Shown: positions 38,135-64,000 of the stretch, in pieces | Position numbering within the stretch: position 1 is the first letter of the stretch | Layout: every line of letters starts with the position of its first letter | Source: Clavelina lepadiformis | Lineage: Eukaryota; Chordata; Ascidiacea; Aplousobranchia; Clavelinidae | Assembly: GCF_947623445.1 (NCBI RefSeq) | Contig: NC_135245.1 | Location: 20,591,501-20,655,500, forward strand | Length of the DNA stretch: 64,000 bases | Direction: 5' to 3' | The notes under the pieces: generated by a model | What the model was told of the DNA's origin: nothing | The model's input: only the letters and a program-made list of their open reading frames with translations | Databases searched by the model: none | Program-made: the position numbers and the translations under genes

Positions 38135-38530
38135 TTAACTTTCTTCACGAATTTTTTTGTATTCGGAAATTTGTTCTGGAAAGATTGTTGTCAATTGGCT
38201 CATCAATTCTTTTCGGAACTTTCTATAAACGTCGGTTTTCCCTTTCACAAGCTCATTTTTCATCAACGCCTTCTCAATGCAATCTTTTGTGTAGAGTTGT
38301 GGGTTCTTTCCTGCGTCGATATAATCAAAAACTTCCAGAGGAATTTGCACATCTGCAAAGGCCGACTTACAGTTTTCAATTTCCTTTAAAGTTGTTATCA
38401 TAGAATTGACCTTTTGGTTGAGCACGTTTTGCCCTTGTGGAGGGAAGTCACTGACTATAATGCCGAGTCGACGAACAGTTTCGATAAATTGCTCCAAGTT
38501 TTCTTCAAGAACTTCAAACTTATCTGCCAT
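38135..38530 (-). CDS. MED10: Mediator complex subunit 10
   Basis: A single exon of 131 codons, close to the usual length (human 135). MADKFEVLEENLEQFIETVR, RRLGIIVSDFPPQGQ, LNQKVNSMITTLKEIE, VPLEVF-like IPLEVFDYIDAGKNPQLYTK and ALMKNELVKGK are the conserved MED10 blocks along its whole length. MED10 is a middle-module Mediator subunit that transmits activator signals to RNA polymerase II in the nucleus. It is the first gene of the MED10-GPKOW-RRP36-FKBP8 series; a pyrimidine tract ending in TTTATCAG lies about 25 bases before its start. Confidence 0.96.
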   Translation of the reverse strand: MADKFEVLEENLEQFIETVRRLGIIVSDFPPQGQNVLNQKVNSMITTLKEIENCKSAFADVQIPLEVFDYIDAGKNPQLYTKDCIEKALMKNELVKGKTDVYRKFRKELMSQLTTIFPEQISEYKKIREES

Positions 38531-41498: not shown

Positions 41499-42770
41499 TT
41501 ATGACAAATAAAAATCAATTATTGACCTATCAATTGCAACTGACTTCGAACAACAACCCAACTGTTTGTTTTTGTCAATACACTGGCGTTTGGCAGCTTT
41601 TTCAACACACTTCTCCTCGGCAGGATGTTTCATTGCATTATTTTTAGTCAAAATTTTTTGTTTATTGTTTTTCAAGCAATCACAGATGACAAGATGATTT
41701 ACAACCTGGCTTCTGGGACATGAAGAATTCTTTACTTTGGAACCAATACGAGGTTTCCTTCTATAAAATGACATGGTTTTCTTTTTGGTCTCATTTAAAG
41801 ATTGTTCGTGTTTTTCTTCAAAGTTTCTTTCAATTTCTTTGATATATGAGTTTATCAAACTGACCGCCCATCCCTTCCCAATGCAATCATAAGAACTTCT
41901 GAACACACCTATGTGATACCTCGCGGGATGGGGACAAACGTTAAACTTACTCACTTTTTTTCGAGAAATAATTCCATCAATTATCATCTGAGTATGGTCC
42001 ACAACAATGGTTGTTAATTTTTCAACTGTTTCAAGGTAAGGAAAAACATCAACTGTTATCTGTGCATTCCCATCCAGTCTCAGACTTTCCAAATTTTCCA
42101 AGCCCTTACCAGCTCTTCGATGATGCTGAGTTAAGTTCTTCATACCTTTTAATGATATGTTATTATTGCACAAAACGAGTTTTTTTAAACATGAGAGGGT
42201 CCCAACATAAACCAATGCTTCGTGCTCGTTTCCAATTCTGCAGCTTGAAAGATCTAGTTCTTCTAAATATAGATAAGGAGTAATACAATCAAAAGAAGAT
42301 GATAGAAACATCCACTTGCCACACAACTGAAGCTTTTCTAACAACTTCTTTTCATAAGCATCAGTAAATATTTGCAATGCTCTTTTCCAATTTTCATTGT
42401 TGTTAGGCTCAAAGTGGCCAAATTCAACACAAGAATCAAAAATTTCTTTCCCAATTAATTCTGGAAACCCACAAAGTGACTCCACAAGGTGCAAGTTATT
42501 GGCAACATACAAAATACAAATTTTACGGAGTGGAAGAAGAACGTCAAATTCAAAGTCCGACTTTGTTGTAAACTGGGAAGCACTTTTCATGTAATGCTGT
42601 GCTTTTGACACAGCGTTCATTGATTTAGAAACTTTGTAACTTACCTCATTGGAATGTTGTTTAATAGAATACACAAATGTACACCATTTGTCTGTCTTCA
42701 TATTACAATGGTATATTTTCCCGTTACCAAATGGTTCCATTCCAAAGAGCACAAGTTTCTCATAGAACAT
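41499..42770 (-). CDS. LRRC42: Leucine-rich repeat-containing protein 42 homologue
   Basis: One uninterrupted ORF of 423 codons. Conserved blocks in order: HLVESLCGFPELIGKEIFDS (human has a DSLIGFPEQIAEKLF block here), ALQIFTDAYEKKLLEKLQLC, then leucine-rich repeats at about residues 165-265 (YLEELDLSSCRIGNEHE, CLKKLVLCNNNISLKGM, GLENLESLRLDGNAQITVD, EKLTTIVVDHTQM). The C-terminus is basic and low in complexity. LRRC42 has no settled molecular function. The gene is intronless here, whereas other genes in the window are split into short exons; an old retrocopy that replaced the parent, or intron loss, are both possible. The N-terminus is less well conserved, so an upstream coding exon cannot be excluded. 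Confidence 0.82.
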   Translation of the reverse strand: MFYEKLVLFGMEPFGNGKIYHCNMKTDKWCTFVYSIKQHSNEVSYKVSKSMNAVSKAQHYMKSASQFTTKSDFEFDVLLPLRKICILYVANNLHLVESLCGFPELIGKEIFDSCVEFGHFEPNNNENWKRALQIFTDAYEKKLLEKLQLCGKWMFLSSSFDCITPYLYLEELDLSSCRIGNEHEALVYVGTLSCLKKLVLCNNNISLKGMKNLTQHHRRAGKGLENLESLRLDGNAQITVDVFPYLETVEKLTTIVVDHTQMIIDGIISRKKVSKFNVCPHPARYHIGVFRSSYDCIGKGWAVSLINSYIKEIERNFEEKHEQSLNETKKKTMSFYRRKPRIGSKVKNSSCPRSQVVNHLVICDCLKNNKQKILTKNNAMKHPAEEKCVEKAAKRQCIDKNKQLGCCSKSVAIDRSIIDFYLS

Positions 42771-43027
42771 AAATTTAAACTATGGCAAATAATGAAACTT
42801 AGACACTATTGCCTTGGTACATCAGCACTTGCTCTGTGAAAATTTTTACTCTTGAAAGTCACTCTGGCCTAATCACCATCAACCACTCAGAGTGAAAAGT
42901 ATGGCAGTTTTCAACAAGAAAGTGCATTGGCATGCTTCGGACTATTTGTTAATTACTGTACTTATTTCTCATTGAAATTCACGTATTTCTTAACACACTA
43001 AAAATTATCCGGATTTTACTAACCACA

Positions 43028-45635
43028 GAGTCATTCCATGTATAATCAACCAATTTTTTAAAAATTTGTAACCACTACTCTTGGATTTTGATAATTTCAA
43101 TATATGTTATAGACCTTGGAAAAAGCCGAAGATTAAAAAAAAAATTTTCAAAATATCTCCAGGCGTTTTCGAGTTATTCAAATTTGAAATTTTCGCCACA
43201 CGATGGCCTTTGGCTAGTGAGCACTGGTCACGCTTTATGATTTTCTTTAATATCTTTATTTCTGAAGGTAGAATAATGAAACAAATGTTGAATTTACCAT
43301 TTTTGGGGTCAAGGAATTCATTTAAGCACATAAAAAAACCCATATCACACCTCCTTCATGGAGTAAATTAAGTTTTTTCATTAATCTCAAAGTTCAAGTT
43401 TACGATGCAATTACAAAAATAGCAATCGCATTGGAAACATAATTTTTGCACTTTTGTGTAGCATGGTTCATGTATTTTCATGTATCCAAAAATTGGAAAC
43501 TTGTTTTTTGTTCTTTAGGAATAAAGTTGGTTTTAAAAGCAAGCACGATTTTTAAGATTCCTATAAGATATACAATGCAGATTTGAGCAATATCGTATAA
43601 CTGGTCATGCATATATGCAAGGTTGCAATTCCAAGGCACCAACTGCTAGTGTTTAAAGATTATTCACCAAAAACATTAATTACTGCCTGCTAAAGGTGCA
43701 CTCTGAGCGTGACGCGACACCTGATCGAAAGACACTTTATCGAACGACACTTAATCGAACGACAGTTTATCGAAAGACACTTAATCGAACGACAGCTGAT
43801 CGAAACGACACCTGATCGAAACGACAGTTGATCGAACGACACTTTATCGAACCGACAGTTGATCAAACGACACTTTATCGAACCGACAGCTGATCAAAGC
43901 GACAGTTGATCGAATCGACTGTTGCTTCTCCCGCACACAGTCATAGCAAAACGTGGCGTACCGTTGCATTGTTTGCTGTAGAAAATTAAAATTTGGTGAC
44001 TTTTCATAAAAAATGTTCAGCTATCTGTCCATGTTTGTTTGATAAAGTTGGATTTTGTAATTTTTGAGATATTGTGATATTTATATAATTTTGCTCTCTC
44101 TCCGCATTGAAGCGTATTACTCATTTACGCACCAATAACTTGACTAACTATTCTTTTTCGTTCTCTTTTCACAGCGGGGGCGCGGCGTAACAAGAAGAAT
44201 TTATAGAAATGTGTCACTTTTAGAAATACCTAATTTACACTAAATTCACTTTCTTTAGTTTTACAATTATGATGTATACAGGAAGCCAGATGATGTTTCT
44301 ACTAACCTGTAATAATCTCATCAGTCTACGACGCATAGGTTTCTAGGTTACTCTCGTACTTAGTAATTCTCGTGCGTATTCTTGTGATATCTTATTAATA
44401 TGTGGGCGGGCCGGCCGCCATGCGAAATCGTACACTTTATGATACAAATATAAAATATAGATATAAAATATAAATCGTCAACTTTATGATATATACATCA
44501 CAATTCATTAATGCACACCATTACAAAGACCGCACATCACAATGGCTCATTGTTTCAATGTTTGAGAAACACGCAAAAATCTTGCTTGAACTGTCGGTTC
44601 GATAAAATGTCGTTCGATCAACTGTCGTTTTGATCAACTGTCGGTTCGATAGAGTGTCGTTCGATCAGCTGTCGGTTCGATAAAGTGTCGTTCGATCAAC
44701 TGTCGGCTCGATTAACTGTCGTTCGATAAAGTGTCTTTCGATCATCTGTCGTTTCGATCAGGTGTCGTTCGATAAAGTGTCTTTCGATAAAGTGTCTTTC
44801 GATAAGGTGTCATAGTACCCACTCTGAGAGAGGTTACAGTAAATTTGACTTCCTTTTTGAACTTTAATTTTGCCTACTCCTATTTTGATTCTTATTATTT
44901 TATTATTGTTATTATTATTTTGATTTCATCTATGTATGAAAATGATGAATTTACCCGTTTAATCCCTGGAATTAAAGATTATGTAAGTGTTTTCAAAAAT
45001 GTTCATAAGCAAAAGAGGCTCATTTTGTGTAATTTGAAGAAATTATATGCCACATTTTGTGAAAAATATCCCGAGCTGAAGATTGGATTCTCAAAGTTTT
45101 GTTCACTCAGTCCCAAATGGTGTGTCCCCGTATCGTCCAAAGGCAGTCATTCTGTCTGTGTGTGCATCCAACATCAAAATTCAATCCTTGTGGTTGAATC
45201 TACCAACAACAATGAAACACACAAAACATTGATTGACAAAATAGTGTGCAGCACGGAGAACAAAATGTGCGTGTTGCATCGTTGTGAACAATGTCCTGGG
45301 TCTCAAGCACTAAAAGGCTTTTTACTTGCACAGTATGATGAGGAACTTGATGATGAAGTCCAATGCCAGCAATGGAAGTCTACAGACACGATGGATCTTA
45401 TCACGGTGTTAATGACGAAGTATAAATGGATTCAAGAAATTGTAAGAGTTTTGGATGATCTTACAAAGCATTCATTCATAGCTAAATGCCAATCTAGATA
45501 CTTAAACTCCAAAAAGAGTTCTGTAACAGATGATACTTGTGTGATTTTGCTGGATTTCGCTGAGAATTACACTTTTACAATCCAAGATGAAGTACAAAGC
45601 TATCAGTGGAACCAGCAGCAATGTACAATCCACCC
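43028..45635. repeat. Left arm of large palindrome
   Basis: The inverted copy of this arm is 45994-48888. Without its insertion (43708-44820 plus one 8-bp duplication), the part from 43067 inward is about 1448 bases against 1447 in the right arm, with few differences: translated ORFs differ at one residue over about 260. The outermost 25 bases (GAGTCATTCCATGTATAATC) pair with the far right end beyond the CACTA-like insertion. A direct CACA flanks the whole structure at 43024-43027 and 48889-48892. Confidence 0.93.
43700..44828. mobile_element. DNA transposon with 8-bp target duplication and arrays of subterminal repeats
   Basis: The insertion is 43708-44820 (1113 bp), flanked by ACTCTGAG at 43700-43707 and 44821-44828. 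The right palindrome arm shows the empty site with a single ACTCTGAG. Both ends carry arrays, inverted to each other, of a short unit such as GACACTTTATCGAAC / GACAGTTGATCGAAC (43715-43920 and 44593-44815). No transposase frame was found, so it is non-autonomous. The 8-bp duplication fits hAT-like or similar superfamilies. A central patch at about 44320-44415 resembles part of the hAT element at 10800-11010. Confidence 0.85.
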
Positions 45636-45678
45636 GCTGTTGTGTATTACATGCATGATCACATCTGGTCAGATGTAG
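44845..45678 (+). CDS. Transposon-type protein, left-arm copy (5' part only)
   Basis: 277 codons. It belongs to a repetitive protein family common in metazoan genomes. Recognisable blocks: LKKLYATFCEKYPELKIGFS, KFCSLSPKWCVPVSSKGSHS, VCVCIQHQNS, CVLHRCEQCPGSQALKGFLL, HSFIAKCQSRYL and LLDFAENYTFTIQDEVQSYQ followed by QCTIHP. I know the family only as uncharacterised, transposon-associated proteins. This copy leaves the homologous region at the palindrome's inner border (45635), so its C-terminal half is absent. Its mirror copy lies at 45705-46784. Confidence 0.6.
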   Translation: MTSFLNFNFAYSYFDSYYFIIVIIILISSMYENDEFTRLIPGIKDYVSVFKNVHKQKRLILCNLKKLYATFCEKYPELKIGFSKFCSLSPKWCVPVSSKGSHSVCVCIQHQNSILVVESTNNNETHKTLIDKIVCSTENKMCVLHRCEQCPGSQALKGFLLAQYDEELDDEVQCQQWKSTDTMDLITVLMTKYKWIQEIVRVLDDLTKHSFIAKCQSRYLNSKKSSVTDDTCVILLDFAENYTFTIQDEVQSYQWNQQQCTIHPLLCITCMITSGQM

Positions 45679-45993
45679 GTCTTTGTAAGCTAGCTGTCTT
45701 AACCAGTCATTTAACAGTACTTCCAACACCATCACATGGAGATTTCCCGTGACTGCTTGGAAAAAAGGACCAACACGCTTCCAGGTTGAAATCACACTTG
45801 TGATTGCACAAATTCAGCATATTTTTATACTGTCCAGCGCAACCGTCCGAGAAATATTCAACTTTAGTAATGGACAATGGTGCTGGACAAGCTTGGAATC
45901 AATGCAGTGAGTTTGTACAAAAGCCCATGCACAAAAGCTGTGTCATGTGTTAAGTCATCTGAAACAAAGCAAAATGACTACTGCACAATAGCT
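45636..45993. other. Single-copy spacer at the centre of the palindrome
   Basis: 358 bases between the two arms. Read on the minus strand, it continues the right-arm transposon protein (FVSDDLTHDT, FSDGCAGQYKNMLNLCNHKC, SSHGKSPCDGVGSTVK), so it belongs to the original unit, and the left arm is the duplicated piece. Confidence 0.8.
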
Positions 45994-46784
45994 GGGTGGA
46001 TTGTACATTGCTGCTGGTTCCACTGATAGCTTTGTACTTCATCTTGGATTGTAAAAGTGTAATTCTCAGCGAAATCCAGCAAAATCACACAAGTATCATC
46101 TGTTACAGAACTCTTTTTGGAGTTTAAGTATCTAGATTGGCATTTAGCTATGAATGAATGCTTTGTAAGATCATCCAAAACTCTTACAATTTCTTGAATC
46201 CATTTATACTTCGTCATTAACACCGTGATAAGATCCATCGTGTCTGTAGACTTCCATTGCTGGCATTGGACTTCATCATCAAGTTCCTCATCATACTGTG
46301 CAAGTAAAAAGCCTTTTAGTGCTTGAGACCCAGGACATTGTTCACAACGATGCAACACGCACATTTTGTTCTCCGTGCTGCACACTATTTTGTCAATCAA
46401 TGTTTTGTGTGTTTCATTGTTGTTGGTAGATTCAACCAGAAGGATTGAATTTTGATGTTGGATGCACACACAGACAGAATGACTGCCTTTGGACGATACG
46501 GGGACACACCATTTGGGACTGAGTGAACAAAACTTTGAGAATCCAATCTTCAGCTCGGGATATTTTTCACAAAATGTGGCATATAATTTCTTCAAATTAC
46601 ACAGAATGAGCCTCTTTTGCTTATGAACATTTTTGAAAACACTTACATAATCTTTAATTCCAGGGATTAAACGGGTAAATTCATCATTTTCATACATAGA
46701 TGAAATCAAAATAATAATAACAATAATAAAATAATAAGAATCAAAATAGGAGTAGGCAAAATTAAAGTTCAAAAAGGAAGTCAA
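45705..46784 (-). pseudogene. Transposon-type protein, right-arm copy with its C-terminal part, interrupted
   Basis: The intact part (45978-46784) repeats the left-arm protein with one substitution (ILLVEST instead of ILVVEST). After CTIHPAIVQ a stop follows, then the spacer carries further family blocks in two frames: SFCFVSDDLTHDT, then FSDGCAGQYKN, and HGKSPCDGVGSTVK ending at about 45705. At least one stop and one frameshift interrupt it, so it is decayed. The family is a widespread uncharacterised group of DNA-transposon-like proteins. Confidence 0.65.
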
Positions 46785-47452
46785 ATTTACTGTAACCTCT
46801 CTCAGAGTGCACCTTTAGCAGGCAGTAATTAATGTTTTTGGTGAATAATCTTTAAACACTAGCAGTTGGTGCCTTGGAATTGCAACCTTGCATATATGCA
46901 TGACCAGTTATACGATATTGCTCAAATCTGCATTGTATATCTTATAGGAATCTTAAAAATCGTGCTTGCTTTTAAAACCAACTTTATTCCTAAAGAACAA
47001 AAAACAAGTTTCCAATTTTTGGATACATGAAAATACATGAACCATGCTACACAAAAGTGCAAAAATTATGTTTCCAATGCGATTGCTATTTTTGTAATTG
47101 CATCGTAAACTTGAACTTTGAGATTAATGAAAAAACTTAATTTACTCCATGAAGGAGGTGTGATATGGGTTTTTTATGTGCTTAAATGAATTCCTTGACC
47201 CCAAAAATGGTAAATTCAACATTTGTTTCATTATTCTACCTTCAGAAATAAAGATATTAAAGAAAATCATAAAGCGTGACCAGTGCTCACTAGCCAAAGG
47301 CCATCGTGTGGCGAAAATTTCAAATTTGAATAACTCGAAAACGCCTGGAGATATTTTGAAAATTTTTTTTTTAATCTTCGGCTTTTTCCAAGGTCTATAA
47401 CATATATTGAAATTATCATAATCCAAGAGTAGTGGTTACAGGGCCTGGTTGA

Positions 47453-48873
47453 TTACACTGGACAACAGCAAAATTATTCCTCAAATGAAAATAAACTGCC
47501 TAGACTAACTTTGGGACGCTGATTCCAAATCTGAAATCAGAATTGGTCTATCACGTCAGGTTTTCAAGATATGAAAATTCACGAAATTCGGATTTTGCAT
47601 TGATTGGCACTATATTATAAGGTTCTACAGTACAAGGTATTGTGCAATTTTCTTTCCCAGCGAATTGTTGGTCATATTATGTCACAATGCATGTTATGTA
47701 AGATTAATATTGACATTATTTTGTAAATGCAATGTTCTATCTTTTCACAATTAATGCATTCTTGAATGTTCTTGGCCATGACTATAGAGGGGAGGGGGTA
47801 GGGGTAGGGGGGGAACATATGTGGAGACCTTAAAGTTGTGTCACTTTTGCTCGGATTGCAGTTGGGTTACACCAAGCATATGTGCTTTCTCTGTTTGTGG
47901 GACAGTCGAGACGATGCAAACCACTATGACACAACTGAATGGCCAATGAGAACGGACTACTTTGTTGGAAGATATAATGTTAAGTGCCAACCCCTAATTG
48001 ATCTGAGCAAAGTGTACTTGCCACCACTTCACATTAAACTGGGCCTGATCAAACAATTTGTGAAGGCAATGGATTTCAATGGAGATGGATTCCTGCATAT
48101 AAAAGAAAAATTTGGTGCAATACCAAGTGATGCTAAACTGAGAGCTGGAATATTTGTTGGCCCCCAAATACGTGATTTGATCCGTGACCCAGTATTTCCA
48201 TCCAAGCTTAATTCAATTGAATTAAAAGCCTGGAATGCATTTGTACAGATTGTACAAAATTTTCTTGGGAAGTACAGGGCAGAAAATTACTCGGAACTAG
48301 TGGACAATTTGCTGGAATCATACCGCGAAATGGGCTGCAGAATGTCGGTTAAACTGCATTTTCTTCATTCACACTTGGAATTTTTCCCGCCAAACCTGGG
48401 TGATGTGAGCGACGAGCATGGGGAAAGATTTCACCAAGACATCTCTGTGATGGAATCGCGGTATAGAGGTCGATTTAACCCAAACATGATGGGGGACTAC
48501 TGCTGGTTTCTTCAGCGTGAAACTGACACTGAACATACTCGAAAGAGCAAGTGTATAAAGCACTTTTGAGGGAATATAATGTTATTTTCGTCTGATTTAA
48601 TTATCCTGGGTTGTGTTAAATTGTGCAGTATGATAATGCTGTTATTTTCAATAGAAATTACTGGGTTGATTACATGTAATGTTTTGTTCCGCTCAGCCAA
48701 AATTAGCCAAAATCACAGTTATGGGTTGTCGTGAGCATATATCATATCTCAAAAACGTGACGTGTTAGAAAAAATCTAAGACCAGATTTGGATTCAGCAT
48801 TGCAAAATTAGTCTAGGTAAACTTGAAATGAGCGAGGAATAAAAAATAAGTTGTAAATTGTTGTCCAGTGTTA
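47453..48873. mobile_element. CACTA/EnSpm-like transposon with TTA target duplication
   Basis: The element is 47456-48870, beginning CACTGGACAACA and ending TGTTGTCCAGTG, between direct TTA at 47453-47455 and 48871-48873. Beyond the 12-base termini, about 150 bases at both ends are inverted and clearly related: CCTAGACTAA, then CCAAATCTG, then CACGTCA and AAGATATGA on the left, with their counterparts on the right. CACTG ends with a 3-bp duplication fit the CMC (EnSpm/CACTA/Chapaev) superfamily. It carries one protein fragment (47838-48569) and is inserted in the right palindrome arm only. Confidence 0.82.
47838..48569 (+). CDS. Transposon-associated protein, C-terminal fragment
   Basis: 243 codons inside the CACTA-like element. 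It matches a repetitive metazoan family known to me only as uncharacterised proteins: KHMCFLCLWDSRDDANHYD, LPPLHIKLGLIKQFVKAMD, KAGIF-like RAGIFVGPQIRDLI, AWNAFVQIVQNFLGKYRAEN, MSVKLHFLHSHLEFFPPNLG and DVSDEHGERFHQDISVMESR, then the end block GDYCWFLQR. The family normally has a longer N-terminal half, absent here, so this is the tail of an element protein. No function is claimed beyond its link to the transposon. Confidence 0.65.
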   Translation: MSLLLGLQLGYTKHMCFLCLWDSRDDANHYDTTEWPMRTDYFVGRYNVKCQPLIDLSKVYLPPLHIKLGLIKQFVKAMDFNGDGFLHIKEKFGAIPSDAKLRAGIFVGPQIRDLIRDPVFPSKLNSIELKAWNAFVQIVQNFLGKYRAENYSELVDNLLESYREMGCRMSVKLHFLHSHLEFFPPNLGDVSDEHGERFHQDISVMESRYRGRFNPNMMGDYCWFLQRETDTEHTRKSKCIKHF

Positions 48874-52499: not shown

Positions 52500-53614
52500 A
52501 TGAGAACATTTTATCTATGTGCAATACTTGCCTGGTTTGTGTTGCATTTAGCGTACTGCGGTGGGTATTTTTAAGGCTTGCGATGTTAAGACTAGCCGGA
52601 TATTGCATCATAATTGTGTTTATGACCAGATGGAGGTGGTCATGGTGGAATTTCTCATGACAGTCACGAAAATCTTCAGGATTGCTTTGAGGACTGTGAA
52701 GGGCCTCACAAATGTGTTAACATGGACGAAATGAAAGCGATGATGTCACCAAATTGTGGGCGTTGCGTCACAATGGCTTGTGGTAAGTTTTAGGGTTTGT
52801 TCCCAAATTAAGTTTGGTTTTATGAACTTGTCTATTAGAGATCAGATTCTTAATGCTGTAGTTGACATTTCTGCAGAGGATTCCTCTCATCCGAGAATGG
52901 ATTGTATTGAAGAAGCAATTGCCGGATGTGACGAATGTCCTTCGCCTACACCGGAAATTCTTTCTAGGCGAATGAGATGTGTCGCTTGCAGGAAAGAATG
53001 CCACAAACATCATGGTAATTAGGACGTAATTAGCACTTCATTATGTCAGCTAGGCTAAGCAACATCATCTTTATTGTGAGGATGCTAAAGAAATATTGTA
53101 CGCTGAATGATTTCACCTCTAGGGGCAGCAAAGCCTAAATGCCAGGAAAAGAATTTAACGAAATATTTCCAAGAGTGCCAGGAATCCGGGGAATGTCCCT
53201 TACACGAAACCGAGCATGCCCTTACAGTGGACGAGGAATGCCGAACCTGCGTCAGTGAAGCTTGCCGTGAGTTACCTCTGCATGACGTTACTAATCACTG
53301 GCTGCCACGGTCAAACTCTTTTGTAAACCGTTGTTCAAGTCTTTGACATCACAATCGTTTCTCTGTAGAATCACATTATGACGTTGACTGCGCACTAAGG
53401 CAAAAGATTCTTTGTGAGTCTTGCAGCTTTCCCACAAACGACCAGTTGAGGGCGATGGCGAGATGCGCAGCATGTATGGCAGGAAGGAGCAGCAATGGGC
53501 CCCATGACGGTAACCATGGAAACAAACTTGAAACTGCTCACCATGAAATCTAACGAATCTTTCTTGTACATTGGTTAGATCATGACGTTGATGGCGGTGA
53601 AAGACGTCATTAGA
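52500..53614 (+). CDS. Secreted cysteine-rich A/B-module protein, cluster gene 1
   Basis: Six exons: 52500-52560, 52630-52782, 52877-53014, 53123-53266, 53369-53509, 53580-53614. All introns are phase 1, with GT/AG, giving 223 residues. Exon 1 is a signal peptide (MRTFYLCAILAWFVLHLAYC). A short Gly/His-rich stretch (GGGHGGISHDSH) precedes module A1 (C-x3-C-x5-C-x13-C-x2-C-x4-C), then B1 (C-x7-C-x2-C-x13-C-x2-C-x3-C), an aberrant A2 and an aberrant B2, and a hydrophilic tail DHDVDGGERRH. In A2 the first Cys of C-x3-C is Tyr and a new Cys lies eight residues before it; in B2 the last Cys is missing. No membrane segment follows, so it should be secreted. I do not recognise the family. ATTAAA at 53656 may be the poly(A) signal. 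Start choice: the only ATG giving a signal peptide in phase. Confidence 0.85.
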
Positions 53615-54711
53615 GTCATAACTTCCACAACGATTGAGACCTCTCCATGATGTGGATTAAAAGATTTTCTTGGTCTTGAAAAAAATACACACTTGTTAGA
53701 TTGCTTTGTGATTTCAAAAAAAAAATGCTCCTCGCTTTCAAATGCTATCGAGCAGTGTAGCGTAAAGCTTTATTAAGTGAACATGAACAAAATTGATGAA
53801 TTAAAACAACAGGGAGAAAATCTTTCGCTTATAGCTCGCTATAAGCTTGTTGAATATGTATTTAGTTAGGTTAGTTATTTAGCAAAATCATTCCGACAGT
53901 TGTTGTCGCTTCCAGATTTTTTGCTGTTGAAGCAATGTTGTTGATTAGCTGGGCGCGATGCTGCGTCGTCTTGCATCTATAAAAAAAAGAGTATCTGAGA
54001 AAGTTTATTTTATTTAAGCAAATCATCTAGTGTTTGAAATCAATACAAAAATTCAACGCTGTTGGCGGCAGCACTCCGCATTTTGCAAATAGCGCGGTCA
54101 GAAATGTCGCTTTTATGTTTAACGGGTTTGACAACTGCAAGCCATCTGTAGAGCTATTTGAACATTTCGTGAAAGATGCTAATAAAATCCGAGATATGTT
54201 CAACAAAAAGAAAAGGCAAATTAAGATTTCATCATACTGTAGCAAATGGAGGGTTTACCTGCCCACCATTGTAATTACACATCGCACTCTTTATAAAATA
54301 ATCACCACTTGTTTGTTTTTCCAATACTGTCATCAGACTCATCACTATTGCTTCACAAATATAGATTTAAAACGAAGTGAAACATTGTAGACTGATCTAA
54401 AACTTAAACCAAGTCACGAGGCGCGATTGACAAACACAAGCACCGAGCATGACTATTATGTCATAATTAACATTTAATAGTTATCAAAGTTCGAACTTTT
54501 CTGGTTTAGTTAATGCTTTGTCATTGACCCGAGGCGTCCAAGATGTCACGTGACTGTTTTGCGACTCATTTTATAAGCGCGGGAGCAAGTTTAGTTGTTC
54601 GTTGACTCGCAGTAAGTTTGATAAAACACTTTACCCTCGCCAAGAGTAACGTCTACACTTTACAGTAAAAAGTTACTTGAACCAACTTTATCGCGCTGTT
54701 TAAGTTTTAAG
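53615..54711. other. Spacer between cluster genes 1 and 2
   Basis: Holds the likely 3' UTR of gene 1 (ATTAAA at 53656-53661) and the promoter of gene 2. A 118-codon plus-strand frame at 54034-54390 shows no recognisable domain, splice context or Cys module. Confidence 0.5.
54545..54580 (+). promoter_or_regulatory. Likely core promoter of cluster gene 2
   Basis: GTCACGTGAC, a palindromic E-box of the USF/MITF type, at 54545-54554 is followed by TTTATAAG at 54570-54577, about 135 bases before the start codon. Spacing fits a TATA promoter; function is inferred. Confidence 0.4.
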
Positions 54712-56344
54712 ATGAGGTTTCTCCGCTTTCATTTTGGGTTAGTCGTTCTGCTTCAAATGACCTCGACAGGTGAGTAAAATAAGTAGATTTTCTTTCCCAA
54801 ACTTTTTATGAGTCAAATGATTTTGATTGTTTAAGTTTGTGCCAAGTCAAGTGTGTCCCACACTGAGTATGCGAATATTACTATACTTGATAATAGTTGT
54901 AGCTCTGATATAATGAAATATATCGATTAGAAGCAAAACTCCATTTTACCACTTTTACACACACAACCGCTTGAAAGGCATAGTTCTTTTCCATATTAGG
55001 ATATGGAGAAAATAACGCCGGCAATCTCCGACAATGCCTGAGGTCATGTGAGGGCGCCCAGCGCTGCCCATCGAGAAGCGACATTCCAGTATTTCTGAGG
55101 ACCCTGCCGGCGAGATGCACACAATGCATCACTGACGCCTGCGGTAAGAGAAAGCGAGTGACATTTATGAAAAGCTTTCGCTGTTAATTGTTATTGCCCG
55201 ATTTTCGGCCGATTTTTAAATTAGTCGTTTTCAACCAGTTTTCACAAGTTTGCAAGAAATGTTGGAACTTTTTCTTTAATTATTTTGAGCAGGAAGAACA
55301 CCGGAGGGTTTGTGCCTTGGACCAACTTACAATGCGTGTCCCGCTTGTCCCGGTTTGTCGCTGAACCAGCAGTTGCAGCAGAAGAGGTGTCGAAATTGCG
55401 TGAAAACCTGTTATAAACAGTCCGGTAACGGAGCACGTTCATGTAGAGCTGGAAACTTGCGAAACATTATGGTATAATATTTTTGTTTGGTGTTTACGTA
55501 GGCGCCAGAGTTCCACGACGCCAAAGAAAGACTTTCCGAGAATATGGATGTTTGCTTGATTGTCGCCTGAACGCGATGTGTCCGGATGAGGAAATAGAGG
55601 CGAAGATACGGGAAAATCTCCCGGAAACCTGTGGAAGATGTCTCGGTCATGTTTGCGGTAAAACCATAAAATCTTTGGCGCTATGAGGAAGATTTTTCCT
55701 TTTTTAAGGCTAATCTTGAATGAACTGTGGCTGAGATGAAACATCTTCTGCGTTGTGACAAGTTACATTCGATGGTTTTTCCAGAAAGAAACCAATCTTC
55801 TGACGTCAGAAACGATTTTTCCTGCATCGAATGTCTATCGATCCAACTTAAAGATCAGGGTCGGTGGGAAACCTGCGGCTCCTGCATTGACAGATGTTTC
55901 AGCGGTTTGTGAGGACATTTGTCTAAACGTAAGGAAAATTTCTTCAACAGACGTGTATCTGTCTCAATAGGTCCTATAAAGCATCCCTTTGCGAGGTTCA
56001 GCTGCATGAAAAACTGCGAAGGTCTCCGATCGTGTCCATCGAGGAACTGGTACGCGAACAGAGTGCAAGGATTTTCACAGCCATGTCTGCGATGCATTAG
56101 GAAGGAATGCGGTGAGATGTTTTCTGTTCATTCCACCGCCGCTCTCGCTATAACCTGAACCTTTTATTCAGGCAAGTTTGATAGCAGCAACCCCGCTGAG
56201 ATCGCGGAGATTCCAGATTGCATCGAGGAAGCTTTCCTAGAATGTTATAATTGCCCGCCATACTCTTACGAGGAACAATCGCGTTTGAAAAGCTGTAAAT
56301 TCTGTTTAAACAATTGTTCCCTTGATACAAGGAGTTATAGATAG
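54712..56344 (+). CDS. Secreted cysteine-rich A/B-module protein, cluster gene 2
   Basis: Seven exons: 54712-54769, 55000-55143, 55293-55424, 55502-55657, 55785-55904, 55971-56111, 56172-56344. All introns are phase 1, giving 307 residues. The signal peptide MRFLRFHFGLVVLLQMTS is followed by six modules A-B-A-B-A-B, one per exon. All three A modules have exactly C-x3-C-x5-C-P-x15-C-x2-C-x4-C. B1 and B3 have C-x7-C-x2-C-P-x12-C-x2-C-x3-C. B2 (exon 55785-55904) lacks the first Cys and the CP proline, leaving five Cys; with one free Cys it could pair between chains. This gene shows the pattern most clearly. Every A exon ends right after its last Cys, with the Gly codon split by the intron. Poly(A) signal AATAAA lies at 56391. 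Role unknown: an extracellular, disulfide-rich protein of defence, matrix or recognition type is possible but only a guess. Confidence 0.9.
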
Positions 56345-56390
56345 ACGATTCAAAAATATCCAAGTTTTCTGTGCAAGTGATTGTTTTCTC

Positions 56391-56396
56391 AATAAA
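56391..56396 (+). terminator. Polyadenylation signal of cluster gene 2
   Basis: AATAAA 47 bases after the stop codon at 56342-56344. Confidence 0.75.
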
Positions 56397-59100
56397 AGAT
56401 GATTACGTCATTTACCCTATTGGTTATACACGAACTAAATCTCACTTTTATAGGTTAACAACGGTATGTCAGCACACTATTGTAGGTAGAGCAACATATT
56501 AACAATAAGTTTGTTCAAAACCTTTCTTGTTCTTTGAACAAAAACTTTAAAGTTTTAAAATTGTAAAAACAAAAAGATTTCATTGAAGCCAAGTGACGTC
56601 AACGAGAAGTCCCAAAATTAACTTTTTCATACGTCACAATTTATTATTGAAGTAAAAATGATTTGTAGGCAAGGATGGGTTATATGTTATGTTTGCTGTT
56701 TTGTTAGTAAATTCAAAGCAGCCCATAATTACACAACCTGTATCAATTATGCCGACGGCATCAATGTATCTTAACATCAACGCACCTGAAAGGTTTTTGA
56801 TAATATTTTAAAATCTTGCTTGGTGAGTTATAAGTTTGCTGAACTCATATAAACAGCACAGAAGCAAATAAACTCACATATTTCATTCGAATTATGACGT
56901 AATACCAGTTCAACCACTGAATTGCTAAAAAGAAAAAAAACTTCCCCGGAAATTGCCCACCCCTCCCTTTTATATGTTTTTTAAAAATTCTTGTCAGTAT
57001 TTGAAAGACAGAAGATGTCTTTTGACATTTCTCGGATCAAGGCTTGCTGAGGTCATTTGGGCGGCGACCGTTAAGCTCGTTAAGCGTTGGACGTTAAACA
57101 CAAGTTAGATGCTATTTCAACGATAGAAAGCATACGTGCGAGTGAATTAAATTTATTTAAATTTACAAATGCAACTTTAAAAAAGCGTTTGCTTTAATTT
57201 TGAAGATATATGCAAGCCATAGAAGCAAGTGCGAAAATATGCTTAAGATTTCCTCAAATCTCTTACAACTGACGTTAAACTGAAATGGACCATTTAACCT
57301 GTTTTCAGCTGCAGCGGGAGATGGGCGAGCTTTATTTAACGTTTAAAAAGTAACACAATTTCAGGAAATGGTCACCTCGTGGTTTCATTGCGAGTTGAAG
57401 CTTACACGCAGGATGGTTGACACCTTTCGGAAGGGTTTTGTGTCGTCACTGAAGGGTAGAACTACTAGCTGTAAGTCATAGTGAGAATGTGACTCAAGGG
57501 TTCCTATAGCAACGTTCACAACAAGTTTGACTATTTTGCTTTATGTTTCGTAAAAACTCGTTGTCCTGGCTCTTGAGGTCAAAAGTTATATTTATAACCA
57601 CGTGACCTGAAACGGTTCTTACAGAACTGCATCAGTCGGAATCATTATGACATCATCATCCAGTTCTTTTGGAGGAGAAAAAAAGATGGTGACGAAATGG
57701 ATTTTTGTGCAACAGAAGATATGGTGATGAGTGATGACCACCAGTGTATTTAGGGGAAGGACCATATTTTAGGGATCATATTTTAGGTATAATATACTGT
57801 ATATATATATAATACCATATATAAGGACCATATTTTAGGGGAAGGAGCATATCTTACTCTCGGCTTTCAATAACTTTTGCACACCCTTTAACACAATCCT
57901 TAAAACGTCACTGGTGATGACGTCAAAGATAAAAATCAAAAACATCCAACACTTTCGATGAAACCAACTTCAAGTTACAAGAGCCCGCAAAAAGCATGGA
58001 TCAATGACGTAAGAAAGATGTTTCTGAAAATTTGCTCGAAACTTTTCACCAATGTCCAGGTTCGTCCAATGTGCAGTTGGTCGTGTTCTGGAAGTTGAAG
58101 ATCAGGCTACAAGAAGAAGCTAAGTTTAAGAAGCTACAAGACATTTGTCAGAAATTGCTTCTCCCTAAACATTGAGCACTTTGGTTGAAATAGAAAATCA
58201 GAAGCACCCGCAACAATCTTTATCGGTTGAATTGTGTATTATAATAGAGAAGATAGATCAGGTTCTTCCCTATAATGACTTTTATTCGTCTGAAGAGGAA
58301 GCGATATCTCGATGAATGCGTCATTCACAAGAAAGAAAAGCAAAAATGTCAAATAAACTCATACGCAAACCGGCACCAACGTTGATATGCGGAAAACACG
58401 CGCGACGCACAAAACATGAAAGTTTGTTTAAAGAGTCTCTGCTTTAAACTTACATCGGTATCAAGGTAAGATTAACCGCACGAATGGTAAATCGAGTCCT
58501 AAGGCTGGTCAAGTTTTTAAACCTGAACATATTTGCACAGGCCAAGGGATAAAGCTTTTGGTCGTCTCTCTCGAAGGCGTTCAAGGCGTTCAAGTGCACA
58601 TGACAAGGTCAAAAAAGTTTGTTGTGGTGACGTAAAATTTTTGACGCTCTGATTTAAAATAAGAAACTAATTATGTCTTGTCATTGCAGTTGGTTCTTTC
58701 CGTGGCAGTAAAAAACACGAATTCTTGTTTTTGCCAAATCAATTCTATTTTAAGAAACCCGGTCTCCTTCAGGCAAAATAAGAAAACATTCTTTGGTTCA
58801 ATTGCGAACAAATTTGCAACAAAAACATTTCTTTAACTGAGTTGAAAGCAGATTTTAATTTAAGACTTACGCATACACAGGCTACTAACTGTTTAGTGCG
58901 TTCGCTTGTCGATAAACTGTTCTAATTCCCAGCGTATTATTTTTAAAGATCAGAAATACATCAAAAGTCAACTAGAACGTCTGCCCAGGTTCTCAGAAAT
59001 ATCAATAAAATGAAGGTTAAGATTGAACCAGGACAATGCTGCTCAATTACAACGAGCTTTGAATAATTTTGTGTTGCTCTGTTTTGGCTCGAAATAGAAA
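56397..59100. other. Spacer between cluster genes 2 and 3
   Basis: No exon with the cluster's cysteine pattern was found on either strand. At about 57764-57850 a short unit (ACCATATTTTAGGG) is repeated imperfectly around an AT-dinucleotide run. Confidence 0.5.
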
Positions 59101-60827
59101 ATGAAACTGTTCATTGCAGCGATCCTACTCGCAGCATGCGGTTGGTTTTGGCTATATAGCAATTTGAATTTATAATAGTTTACTACGACGCTGATCACGA
59201 TTAATTTCTGCACGAGCTTGCGATTATTAGCTTCAGAGATAGACAAAAACAAAACCTATTTTCTCCTAAGCGCTTATTTTATTACGTAACTACAAAATGT
59301 TTTCCTTTTTATCGCGGTTTAGATGCTCAAACAACAGAAGGTTCAGGTTTTGAACCTACACCGACACCTAACGGAGAAGTGGAAGACGCGTCTCAGATAG
59401 AGGAAAGGTTTAAAATGGTTAAAAATGCGAGCGATTGCTTCGACACTTGCCAGTCATCAGACGCTTGTATGACGGAAAAGGAACTCCAAGACGAGAATAA
59501 CAAAGACCTCCCGTCCCGCTGCAAGGAGTGCATCTATTGGATGTGCGGTGAGTCACGTGATATATACATGACGGCTGATTGGTCAACGCTGGGTGAGACG
59601 ACAGATTTCGTTTGAACGATTTTCAAGCGAGCGACTTTCAAGTGACGTGTTGGAAGGAAACCGAGAGAGGCTTCCAGAATGCGCGGGGAGAGCTCGATCT
59701 TTTTGCTTAGGATGTCCACCGATGACGTGGCAGCTCCGTCGAAGAATGGGGAGATGCAAGATGTGCATCTATCAATGCAAAGCCAGAAAAAGTAAAGATA
59801 CCTCTAAATTCGAGTTAATCATTACTAGAATGAGCGGTAGAGAGAACATCTCGCATCCATGGACTGAAGCCTTTTTAACGCTTTCGTAGGAAGAGTGTCG
59901 AGGTTTGGATCGAGATCATTTTGCATGAGGAGATGCGAGACTCCCACCAGGTGTCCGGGTAAGGAGGAGATGACGCAGCAGATGACGAAAATGGATGGGG
60001 ATTGCAAAGATTGCTTCATTGAACAATGCGGTCGTTTTCATCAAATGTTAATCATTCTGACTCTTAGTTGTGCAAAATAATCAATAAATCTCACGCTTCA
60101 GGTCGCTATGATCAAAGCAATAAAACCGATGTGGCGGAATGCACGATGCAAGCGCAATCCGATTGTGACGTGTGTCCCCCGATGAAGGTTGAGGAGAGGA
60201 TAAGGACGATGAGTTGTAGGAGGTGCGTCATCAGTTGTATGTCAATCCCCCAACCAACTGCTCGTCCGCCCTCGGCTCCTAGGAGATCGTGCCGGGATAT
60301 TTGCACTTCCCCTGTGTCCCGCCGCCGGTGCCCGACCCGCGACCAGGTTATTTTTACGATCAGGAACCGAACCTCAGCCGAATGTCAAGTATGTGTCAAC
60401 GAAACTTGCGGTGAGAATTAGATTAGACATAGAAAGTTTTAATGTTTGCAAACGAACACGCTTTGTTGACGTCGCAGAGAGCTTGAGCGGAGACGAGATG
60501 GCGGACTGCATGTACGAGGCGAGAGCGAATTGTTCGGTCTGTCCACTGAGCTATCAGTCAATGATGCAACGAAGAGATTGCGCTTCTTGCATTAGAAGAT
60601 GCAACAGCGGTAAGCCGCCATTACACACAAAAAATCTTAATGACGTCAGCAGTAAGCCTTTGTTTTATTCAATGCAGGATTGCGTGTGCAGAGCGTCACT
60701 CGCCCGACCTTTCACTCCGTCTACTTCCGGCCATTCAGGTATTCCTCCAGATCCTTGTTTCAACGATATCATTGGTGATGGCCTCGGCAAAGAGCTGGAG
60801 TATACTAACCTTGAGCATCGATTTTGA
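59101..60827 (+). CDS. Secreted cysteine-rich A/B-module protein, cluster gene 3
   Basis: Exons: 59101-59140, 59323-59547, 59657-59791, 59890-60030, 60102-60410, 60478-60609, 60739-60827. All introns are phase 1, giving 356 residues. The signal peptide is MKLFIAAILLAAC. A Thr/Pro/Glu-rich linker follows, then six modules A-B-A-[B-A]-B. The fifth exon (309 bases) contains a B and an A module joined by a Pro-rich linker with no intron, unlike all other modules. A3 has a longer second spacing (C-x8-C). All six modules keep six Cys. The last exon is a short acidic tail (LGKELEYTNLEHRF). Two points are less sure: the 3' splice site of exon 3 (59657 chosen on phase and pattern; others are possible) and the last exon, where an alternative acceptor at 60680 would give a different short tail. 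AATAAA lies at 60865. Confidence 0.85.
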
Positions 60828-63085
60828 CGTTTTAGCAATCGCTTTATGTAAATATTTCCGTGCAAATAAAAACGGAAGCGAGCAGAAACTTTCCCGGCAA
60901 ACTGTGCAGATTACTTAAAGTTATTTTTAGAGAGAGCGCGGTCAACGCCCGACAAGCATTGCTATGTTGTTTATCAAAAGTCGAAATTTTCTGCCAATGC
61001 TATTATCTCCAAGCAAAATCTGACCAGACGGCTATGTACGGTTTGTGGAACCTTACACTGGTTAAGAACGAAAATCGAGTTTACAGTTGATCGCAAGTCC
61101 TTGAATACTTCATCGGAAATCAAAGTCATCGGCACAAATTGTTCGATGATGTCATCACAGTGACAACCTCTATGCCGTAAAACGCCCATTTACGTCGCTC
61201 GTAAAGCAAAATAATCAAAGAATTGACGTAGTCGTCAAAATCGTGGTACAAGATGTGCATTGTTACACAACCTAATAGTCTCCAGGAAAGGAAAGCTTGA
61301 ATACAACGCCAACTGCGACAGCCATTATTACCGCCGTCGATTTGCTCTTTATGAGTTTCCACTTGCCACAGACCGCCAAGACTGGTTTATCAAAGCCTTA
61401 AAAGAGGTCATCGCAGTTCACGCTTTATAACACATGCACGATGTTGTGGCGTATAGAAGCGCACGATGTTTAGCCAAACACGATCTTTTGATTATTGCAC
61501 AATTGTCTCAAAATACACATTGTTGCTTCACAATAAACTTGCTGCTTCATCACTCGCAACCAAGTGTTGTACAGTTTTTCTCACAAAAAACAGGAAGTGA
61601 CTTAATAAAGGATGATTATTACTTAATGGTGTTTTCCATAATTTTGTAAATTTAATTACTTCTAAAGATTAAAACCGAGAAAGTGAAATCGCGGGTGACA
61701 GAAATGCTACTCATTTCGTGACGTCATAGGAATCAGAACTGAAAGGAGAAGGAACAAGTCATGATGTGAAAGTGTTTTTTCCTTTTTTGGGATAGAAGCA
61801 AATAAGATCGTTTTGAATTCTTGAAGTATTTCTTTAATCTTTTGATATGAAATATTTTGGGATGCTCATTTGCTGCATTTCGTTCATACAAATATAAGGT
61901 TCGTCAAACCAGAGCCAGCTATTTCCTGGCTCTCATTCAAGACAGATATGATGACGCATATTGCAAAAGCTGAGTAGCATACCAACTACATGTAATGCTG
62001 ACATGCGCCAAAGCATTGTTTCATGTTATGCGCGTCGCTATATCCAAGTTCAGAAGATTTCTTCACCTACTCCGCAGTAAGTTATCATTTGCATTTTGGA
62101 TTTCTGCCCAATCAAGACATTTGCGGCCATGTTGTTATGCCCAGTACAAACATAATCATGCTGAGGCTCTAAAAACCGATGTGGTTGAAGTTCTTGTGGA
62201 AATCATCTGGCGACATTAAACCGGAAACCTGTGTTCATTTTGTGAAACCTGTTCATTTAATGAAATGTGCAGCTTTGGGTAAAATATTTCTCTTTTCATC
62301 TGTAGCGAGACTGAGAAATTATAGTTTCAAGACGGCAAGTGACAAAAAATTTCATAAAGGAACAATCTGAATTGGCCGAGCAAATTTTTCCACCAAAATT
62401 TCTAATGATTGACAATGACAGATTAATGATTGACATACCAAACCAGGATAACAATTTACCGCAAAACCTGAATCAATGTTCATATTAACTGACGTCATCG
62501 CTGCTTCCAGCTGCCAGTCGCTCGAGGCCGTGAAGTTTTTAGGTTGGTCGCGTTGGTAGCCGAAAGAGATTTTTATCTCGAACAAACATAGCTGATGTTA
62601 AAAGATTTACTGTTGTTTCGGAGCTTGCGCGGTAAAAGCTTCCTCTATTATTTGGGGAGTGTCTGCTCATTACTTGTTTTATTATTCCTTTTAATTGGCG
62701 CAAATAGCGCGGATGACGAGGCAAAAGAAATTTCGATGTGCGTTGGCTCGCAATAAATAGCTCTCGGTGTAAACGTGCCGATATCTGCTGCTTCGTTGCT
62801 ATATATAATAAGCAGACTGAAGAGAACTCGCATTTTTTGTGATTGTTTGCTCGCAATAACAGAACAAGCAGATGAAAAACTTTCTAGTTTGCATTATGTT
62901 AGGACAAGCTTTTAACAAATCGGAGTTTTTTATGAGTGAGATTTTGATATGCGTTTGATATATAGATATTTTTGGAGCACACGAACCATACACGAGATAC
63001 AGATAAAAGCAAAACTGAATTAAAAAAACAAAGGAAGCAGTTAACTGGCCTTTATTTTTAGACTTGTTCTGAAAAATTTCCCAAA
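60828..63085. other. Spacer between cluster genes 3 and 4
   Basis: Contains the AATAAA of gene 3 (60865-60870). No further cluster exon or other gene was recognised on either strand. Confidence 0.5.
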
Positions 63086-64000
63086 ATGCTGAAATCTGTT
63101 TTAGAGTTTATCTTACTGACTGGTTTCTTGTTAAGTGAGTATAATTGTTGGAGCATTTGTTTGAAAATTCGTGTAGATTGCTCTTGAAAGCTTCTCAACG
63201 CAATTTAGCGATGAAATCATTTTTTTGCAGGTTGCTCTGGACATGACAATCCAACTGGAGAGCTCGTGAAAGACGGCGACTGCAGAGAGATGTGCAAGAC
63301 GTCGAGTGGATGTCCATCGGATGATGTGATGCGGAGAATGATGATGACGGACAAAGACTGCAGGGAATGCGTCCAGGATCAATGCGGTGGCTATTTCGAT
63401 CGACATAAGACATATAAAAACATTTGCATCTTTGTCATACTGGAGAATAACTTAACCTTTAGGAAACCTGGCCAGCTCCAACGGGACTTCTTTGATGACG
63501 TGCATCGTGGAGGCGAGAGCTGGATGCGAGAAATGTCCGACTCCTGGAAAACCAGGCAGGATGGCAGAGTGCATGTCGTGTTTGAGAAAATGTCCTCGAG
63601 CTGGCAAACGCGAAACCGGTTGGTTGTGGCTTATTGCAGTGTTCAAAGATATTGTCGCGGTTGAATGGATAAAAAGAGCAGCGATATTATTAGACTTAAT
63701 TGATAATTAAGATGTATTTGGCGCCAGGTATGACGACATGTCGCAGACGATGCGTCTTTTCACTCAATTGTCCTTCAACAAATGGAATTATGACGTTTTT
63801 TCAAAACACAACCTTGGTCAATTCTCAATGCCGCGAATGTGTGATGGGAATGTGCGGTGCGTCACAAAGCAATGACGTCATGTCTATTGTTACGAAATGT
63901 GGTCTAATTCTTTGTTTGTTTTTCGTTAGAAGATACAGACAGTGCAGAGGTGGATGAGAAGGCCATCTGCATGTTCAACGCGCGAGAAGAATGCGAGGAC
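63086..64000 (+). CDS. Secreted cysteine-rich A/B-module protein, cluster gene 4 (cut by window end)
   Basis: Exons so far: 63086-63134, 63231-63386, 63463-63618, 63728-63856, and 63930 to beyond the window. All introns are phase 1. The signal peptide MLKSVLEFILLTGFLLSCSG is followed by A1 (C-x3-C-x5-C-x15-C-x2-C-x4-C), B1 (C-x7-C-x2-C-x11-C-x2-C-x3-C), A2 (C-x3-C-x5-C-x19-C-x2-C-x4-C) and the first half of B2 (C-x7-C ...). The repeated B motif (C-x3-EARA-x-C) is shared with gene 3, so these two are closest relatives. The gene continues past position 64000; how many modules it has cannot be told. Confidence 0.87.

What the first reader, a model, noticed from the sequence alone, without database searches (positions are those of the whole stretch)
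52500..64000. Unrecognised tandem family of secreted proteins built from two alternating six-cysteine modules
Four adjacent same-strand genes each encode a signal peptide followed by strictly alternating modules: A = C-x3-C-x5-C-x13to19-C-x2-C-x4-C and B = C-x7-C-x2-C-x11to13-C-x2-C-x3-C. About 20 modules are present, and outside the cysteines (and a frequent Pro after the third) they share little sequence, as in fast-evolving extracellular proteins. Neither spacing matches a disulfide domain I know (EGF, kringle, Kazal, WAP, ShK, saposin, CHCH). The A-B pair may be the true 12-Cys folding unit. Known: the pattern, signal peptides and exon map. Inferred: secretion, disulfides, novelty.
Basis: partly seen in the sequence, partly recalled or inferred. 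Interest (0 to 1): 0.92.

Follow-up and report, generated by a model that had tools for sequence, protein, structure and literature searches.

The report
Sea-squirt secreted proteins, twin cysteine modules
This stretch of a sea-squirt genome holds a row of genes for probably secreted proteins strung together from two small, cysteine-rich building blocks that always alternate; the family matched no catalogued protein family we searched and may be distantly related to the vanadium-binding proteins and antimicrobial peptides for which sea squirts are known.

Summary
Four + strand genes in the window (a fifth just beyond) encode a signal-like exon, then strictly alternating six-Cys modules A and B: 28 modules in five genes, 19 whole ones in the window, 16 of them with every canonical Cys. 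Random sequence gave 0 hits against 25. Modules are mostly single exons with phase-1 splice sites. A second cluster lies 2.1 Mb away (46 modules, dN/dS 0.39), and one decayed pair elsewhere. Pfam, NCBIfam, PHROGs, PDB sequences and Foldseek gave no convincing match. A-to-B linkers are short, acidic, never dibasic; B-to-A linkers are basic and often dibasic, so A-B is the likely 12-Cys repeat and B-A a hinge or cleavage site. AlphaFold makes module A all-helical (pLDDT 78). The genome carries vanabins (PF11437), so the host is an ascidian. Module tails (CxxCxxxC, CxxCxxxxC) equal those of vanabins, but profile tests do not establish kinship. Side result: antimicrobial turgencins match the middle module of vanabins (hhalign 91%). 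Best reading: a lineage-specific secreted host-defence or metal-binding repeat family. Function, secretion and disulfides are not shown.

The parts
52500..53613 (+). gene 1, 223 aa, SP-A-B-a-b; exons 52500-52560, 52630-52782 (A), 52877-53014 (B), 53123-53266 (degenerate A), 53369-53509 (degenerate B), 53579-53613 (tail, stop)
   Evidence: GT-AG introns, frame kept, one stop at the end
54712..56344 (+). gene 2, 307 aa, SP-A-B-A-b-A-B; exons 54712-54769, 55000-55143, 55293-55424, 55502-55657, 55785-55904 (B lacking C1), 55971-56111, 56172-56344
59101..60778 (+). gene 3, 360 aa, SP-A-B-A-B-A-B plus a basic C-terminal tail; exons 59101-59140, 59323-59547, 59657-59791, 59890-60030, 60102-60410 (B and A fused in one exon), 60478-60609, 60678-60778. 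Weakest model: last exon and the 59657 acceptor chosen by eye
63086..64000 (+). gene 4, cut by the window end; exons 63086-63134 (SP), 63231-63386 (A), 63463-63618 (B), 63728-63856 (A), 63930-64070 (B, past the end); four more module exons lie outside, at least 438 aa, SP-(AB)x4; its 3' end was not modelled
52683..52781 (+). first A module, Cys core
52903..53001 (+). first B module, Cys core
60102..60410 (+). single exon holding a B module, a Pro/Arg linker and an A module; used for structure prediction

Best explanation
These are ascidian secreted tandem-repeat proteins (known so far only from this genome). The repeat is an A-B pair of two helical, three-disulfide mini-domains joined by a short acidic linker; A-B pairs are joined by longer, basic hinges that often carry dibasic sites. 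Most likely the chain folds in the secretory pathway, each module closing its own three disulfides (by analogy with turgencin: C1-C6, C2-C5, C3-C4), and is delivered as a multivalent or cleavable chain of A-B units to blood or mucosal surfaces, where it acts in host defence. Repeats multiply because a phase 1-1 exon can be duplicated without breaking the frame. Shown: gene anatomy, alternation, splice phases, linker asymmetry, purifying selection between the two cluster-2 copies. Inferred: secretion, disulfides, cleavage, defence role.
For: 25 modules against 0 in 100 random sequences. Open spliced models from ATG to stop for genes 1-3 (the automatic models used phase-1 sites only). Phase-1 donor after every A. 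Strict alternation in 5 genes of the window cluster and 2 of the second cluster. Linkers in the window cluster: dibasic 5 of 9 B-to-A, 0 of 14 A-to-B, Fisher p 0.0037, mean net charge +3.1 and -1.6; second cluster, distinct linkers, 15 of 17 and 0 of 10 (not independent). In a midpoint-rooted tree 35 distinct A modules form one clade, support 0.76, apart from 32 B; the three degenerate modules were left out. dN 0.031, dS 0.079 over 17 of 18 module exons of the shorter cluster-2 gene. Module A predicted all-helical, pLDDT 78, pTM 0.47. Helix propensity: C4-C6 of both modules and C1-C3 of B are the most helix-prone, C1-C3 of A only moderately. Turgencins, six-Cys ascidian antimicrobials with a helix-loop-helix-like fold and nested disulfides, are a precedent (PMC7024374, passages).
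Against: No expression, proteome or activity data. Dibasic pairs are expected in Arg-rich linkers, 4 of 9 window-cluster hinges have none, and I did not test them against a convertase motif. Modules are near neutral, not strongly cationic (mean +0.8 for A, -0.5 for B), unlike typical antimicrobials. Three of five genes have odd Cys counts after removal of 20 residues (23, 35, 25; genes 4 and 5 have no modelled 3' end), so some thiols may be free or pair between chains. The B-A model is of low confidence (pLDDT 48.5). The A/B split in the tree is partly built in by the different Cys spacing, and profile comparison does not prove A and B to be sisters (22 of 150 permuted as good). Helices of turgencin B are only partly populated in water (PMC7024374).
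Confidence: 0.4

Rival explanations
1. The modules are distant vanabin relatives: a giant, modular branch of the ascidian metal-binding or metal-reducing family. Vanabin's 18 Cys read as three six-Cys modules, of which the second (C-x3-C-x4/5-C-x4-7-C-x2-C-x3-C) and third (C-x4-C-x3-C-x9-13-C-x2-C-x4-C) have the same tails as B and A, in the order B-A.
For: Tails identical; the coding intron of four vanabin genes here, read by eye, is also phase 1 and lies between modules; vanabins are clustered too, on contig C4. B against turgencin plus vanabin M2: hhalign 38%, 8 of 120 loop orders as good or better, the true order included. PF11437 is not sensitive: it missed the VanabinX-type open frame of this genome, so its silence on A/B is weak evidence.
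Against: No PF11437 match in 25 single modules, two B-A exons or spliced genes 2-4, and none listed on C6. Profile scores do not beat loop-permuted vanabins (37, 40, 27 and 37 of 150); other single-module tests are no better: A-turgencin 114, B-turgencin 24, A-turgencin/M2 16, A-M3 43, B-M2 34 of 120. Foldseek of module A does not list 1vfi. Vanabin2 is Lys-rich (14 K, 5 R); A/B chains have more Arg than Lys.
Confidence: 0.25
2. Structural matrix proteins (tunic, egg coat, mucus) in which A-B repeats act as cross-linked rigid beads on basic hinges, without cleavage.
For: Long regular repeats (10 and 13 A-B pairs in cluster 2), alternating acidic and basic linkers that could zip chains together, odd Cys counts in three of five genes allowing cross-links.
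Against: Chains vary from 4 to 26 modules, and modules of the window cluster are only 17-35% identical to the reference module of each alignment, more like fast-evolving effectors; no expression data either way.
Confidence: 0.2
3. Not expressed: decaying duplicates that merely keep the pattern.
For: Three of 19 whole modules in the window lack a canonical Cys; a clearly decayed pair exists on contig C1.
Against: Open frames through 6-7 exons with GT-AG introns in three genes; dN/dS 0.39 between the cluster-2 copies; near-invariant free spacings.
Confidence: 0.05

Closest known systems
Vanabins (Pfam PF11437; Vanabin2, PDB 1vfi)
   Same: Ascidian proteins; six-Cys stretches ending CxxCxxxC and CxxCxxxxC; phase-1 intron between modules; tandem gene cluster
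   Different: One 18-Cys domain of about 90 residues with a different first half of each module and short C3-C4 loops; PF11437 does not match A/B
Turgencins A and B of Synoicum turgens (PMC7024374)
   Same: Ascidian six-Cys peptides, C4-x2-C5-x3-C6 tail as in B, helix-loop-helix-like
   Different: C-x3-C-x4-C-x7/8-C-x2-C-x3-C, free 35-36-residue amidated peptides; B has x7, x2 and A has x5 in the first half; no profile support for A. The authors had no gene sequence
Viscotoxin/crambin-type C1-C6, C2-C5, C3-C4 peptides (as cited in PMC7024374)
   Same: Nested disulfides on helix-loop-helix, the topology proposed here
   Different: Plant peptides, typically with two adjacent cysteines; a topological analogy only

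Membership tests
Vanabin (PF11437) | Match to PF11437 over the curated cut-off | tested here: not met
   No match in 25 single modules, 2 B-A exons or spliced genes 2-4; five places on C4 do match. Caveat: one VanabinX-type open frame of this genome also fails this test
Vanabin (PF11437) | 18 conserved cysteines in about 90 residues (16 in VanabinX) | tested here: not met
   A/B chains are repeats of 12 Cys per about 100-130 residues
Vanabin (PF11437) | Bow-shaped structure with nine disulfides (PMC9486056; four helices recalled) | tested here: inconclusive
   Module A predicted helical, but Foldseek lists no 1vfi; 43 residues give little power
Vanabin (PF11437) | Binds V(IV) / reduces V(V) | not testable with these tools
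   -
Turgencin-like peptide | Cys spacing 3,4,7/8,2,3 | tested here: not met
   A 3,5-8,13-19,2,4; B 7,2,8-13,2,3
Turgencin-like peptide | C1-C6, C2-C5, C3-C4 disulfides, amidated C-terminus, antibacterial | not testable with these tools
   -
Catalogued disulfide domains (EGF, kringle, Kazal, WAP, ShK, saposin, CHCH and the rest of Pfam-A) | Match over the curated Pfam score | tested here: not met
   Single modules: best E 0.0033 (C1_1) and 0.0059 (DUF3640), each in one module only (cut-offs not shown there). Spliced genes 2-4: only DUF3640 in gene 4, 14.4 bits against a cut-off of 25. Genes 1, 5 and the two cluster-2 chains were not scanned whole

The most novel reading that the evidence does not exclude
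A modules, B modules, vanabin modules and the antimicrobial turgencins all descend from one ancestral ascidian six-Cys helical hairpin spread by phase 1-1 exon shuffling: the same fold serving as a free antimicrobial, as part of the vanadium carrier, and as beads on long, cleavable defence or metal-carrying chains of up to 26 modules.
Probability: 0.22. Interest if true: 0.75.

Novelty: new variant of a known kind. Interest (0 to 1): 0.5.

Why it matters
If the kinship with vanabins and turgencins held, it would give a testable origin for two ascidian puzzles: the vanabins (identified only from vanadium-rich ascidians, PMC9486056) and the orphan turgencin antimicrobials, whose authors state that their relationships await the genes (PMC7024374).

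Tried and rejected
Alignment searches of the genome and conserved-stretch searches of viral and prokaryote collections were not possible with so diverged an alignment. GH6 as a tunicate marker: silent here and in all 14 controls, so uninformative. Weak extra hits: C1:26758540 (zinc-finger-like ORF, my reading) and C4:24667760 (gag-like ORF with a zinc knuckle, my reading) rejected; C4:22483880 (E 0.57) and two weak hits of a vanabin query (C4:17639593, C3:297416) not inspected. Turgencin A finds nothing in this genome, with no positive control. Vanabin homology of A/B by profile: not better than loop-permuted controls. A-B homology by profile: 22 of 150 permuted as good. B-A structure: too uncertain to use. 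Papers: the listings (titles and starts of abstracts, capped lists) and the texts I opened (PMC9486056 parts 1-4 of 5; PMC7024374 and PMC10888236 passages; PMC13208793 part 1 of 6) showed no description of alternating A/B modules; the library lacks most subscription journals.

Full report
What is there. The window lies at contig 6, 20591501-20655500, of a 209 Mb genome. Six-frame scans find modules A and B only on the + strand between 52683 and the window end, and on to 72388 when downstream DNA is added: 25 modules with six canonical Cys (13 A, 12 B) in 93.3 kb, none on the other strand or elsewhere. One hundred order-2 Markov sequences of the same length gave none. Spliced models give gene 1 (223 aa), gene 2 (307 aa) and gene 3 (360 aa), each from an ATG with a hydrophobic first exon to a single stop, gene 4, which leaves the window, and gene 5 beyond it (3' ends of genes 4 and 5 not modelled). 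With three degenerate modules counted, the order is ABAB, ABABAB, ABABAB, ABABABAB and ABAB, 28 modules.

Exon grammar. With splice sites of all phases scored by a simple score of my own, all 36 A modules of both clusters have a phase-1 donor one base after the C6 codon, the best-scoring one in 35; the best acceptor of B is phase 1 in 32 of 35. The automatic gene models then used phase-1 sites only, so they do not test the phase again. In cluster 2 B exons commonly have the acceptor 38 bases before C1 and the donor 13 bases after C6. B and A sit fused in one exon in gene 3 and in five places of cluster 2. Symmetric 1-1 exons are the known substrate of exon shuffling in extracellular proteins (general knowledge).

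A second cluster. A protein query found relatives 2.1 Mb away on the same contig; the cluster spans C6:18482378-18499359 by module cores. There two genes lie in inverted orientation, with 20 and 26 strictly alternating modules, 1109 and 1446 aa in my models; their arms share 5.75 kb at 91.7% identity, introns included. Over 17 exon pairs (3096 bases; each exon of the shorter gene paired with its closest equal-length exon, one exon without such a partner dropped, one partner exon used twice) dN is 0.031 and dS 0.079, which points to purifying selection; gene conversion was not excluded. A third place, C1:8609196-8609536, is a decayed A-B pair that lost several cysteines. Other genome queries added no further cluster; counts are lower bounds.

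A-B as the unit. In the window cluster the A-to-B linkers are short (7-16 residues, one of 31), acidic (mean -1.6) and never dibasic (0 of 14), while the B-to-A linkers are 12-43 residues, basic (mean +3.1) and dibasic in 5 of 9 (Fisher p 0.0037). Cluster 2 shows the same more strongly, 15 of 17 against 0 of 10 distinct linkers, though its repeats are not independent. N-glycosylation sequons occur in 15 of 35 A-to-B and 1 of 29 B-to-A linkers of both clusters as first parsed, repeats included. A midpoint-rooted tree puts all 35 distinct A modules in one clade with support 0.76, as expected if an A-B pair was duplicated as such; Cys spacing alone drives part of this split.

Fold. Module A, predicted from nine window modules, is all-helical with mean pLDDT 78 and pTM 0.47 (helices 4-10, 20-29, 32-42; the five models 67-78). 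The B-A exon, aligned for the B half only, is of low confidence (48.5) with two helices in the B half. Foldseek with module A found no solved structure at E below 7. C4-C6 of both modules and C1-C3 of B are the most helix-prone stretches; C1-C3 of A is only moderately so. I propose helix-loop-helix with nested disulfides, as derived by NMR for turgencin B, whose helices are only partly populated in water (PMC7024374, passages); the pairing in A and B is inferred.

Is it known? Pfam gives no match over a shown cut-off for spliced genes 2-4 and only isolated weak hits for single modules; NCBIfam nothing relevant for A, PHROGs nothing for B below E 0.06, PDB sequences none for A and nothing better than E 0.016 for B. 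The host carries a vanabin cluster: five places over the PF11437 cut-off at C4:8747031-8776431, none in 14 control genomes, and at least one gene of VanabinX type with an acidic tail, which PF11437 itself misses.

Vanabin and turgencin link. Cutting the 18 vanabin cysteines into three sixes gives a second module 3,4-5,4-7,2,3 and a third 4,3,9-13,2,4; their tails equal those of B and A. The vanabin coding intron lies between the first and second six and is phase 1 in four genes, by my reading of the DNA. Yet profile comparisons do not exceed loop-permuted controls: 37, 40, 27 and 37 of 150 for pair profiles against vanabin, and for single modules A-turgencin 114, B-turgencin 24, A-turgencin/M2 16, B-turgencin/M2 8, A-M3 43 and B-M2 34 of 120 loop orders, the true order included. 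So membership is not claimed. By contrast turgencins match vanabin M2 at 91% with 2 of 120 orders as good, the true one included, and the same spacing 3,4,7,2,3 occurs in turgencin B and in one vanabin of this genome; turgencin against M3 is at chance, 61 of 120. I saw no mention of this in the passages of PMC7024374 that I read, where the authors report no overall similarity to known peptides or proteins.

Verdict. Function, secretion, disulfides and cleavage remain to be shown.

Noticed in passing
L064 and L065 (G000:C4:8745525-8753500) and PMC7024374: Ascidian antimicrobial turgencins have the Cys spacing of the middle six cysteines of vanabins and match their profile (hhalign 91%, 2 of 120 loop orders as good): turgencins may be free vanabin middle modules.
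   Followed up: partly
G000:C4:8746-8777 kb (L064, L065): Vanabin gene cluster; four genes read here have one coding intron after the first six Cys, and one has an acidic C-terminal tail like VanabinX.
   Followed up: partly
window 43067-47440: Near-perfect inverted repeat (arms of 816, 375 and 274 nt, 99-100%), each side with nearly the same long ORF (44806-45675 +, 45981-46814 -); the + one has no Pfam match over its cut-off. Looks like a recent fold-back mobile element, with short inverted repeats at 43716-44811.
   Followed up: no
window 47808-48566 +: 253-residue open frame without Pfam match (E 0.01) beside the inverted repeat, possibly from a mobile element.
   Followed up: no
G000:C6:18482368-18499369 (L029, L030): Inverted duplication of a giant A/B gene with internal repeats of about 1.45 kb; the two arms hold 10 and 13 A-B pairs.
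   Followed up: partly
L061, G000:C1:8607564-8609557: Decayed A-B pair near an open frame that looks like a hAT-type transposase by eye; perhaps moved by a transposon.
   Followed up: no
window 3691-42779: Ordinary neighbours: astacin exon 3691-4005 -, carboxypeptidase-like exons 18119-19856 + (just below Pfam cut-offs), GPKOW 35220-36170 -, Med10 38138-38539 -, weakly LRR-like ORF 41502-42779 -.
   Followed up: no
window 60678-60778 +: Gene 3 seems to end in a basic, aromatic tail of about 33 residues not seen in genes 1 and 2; exon chosen by eye.
   Followed up: no
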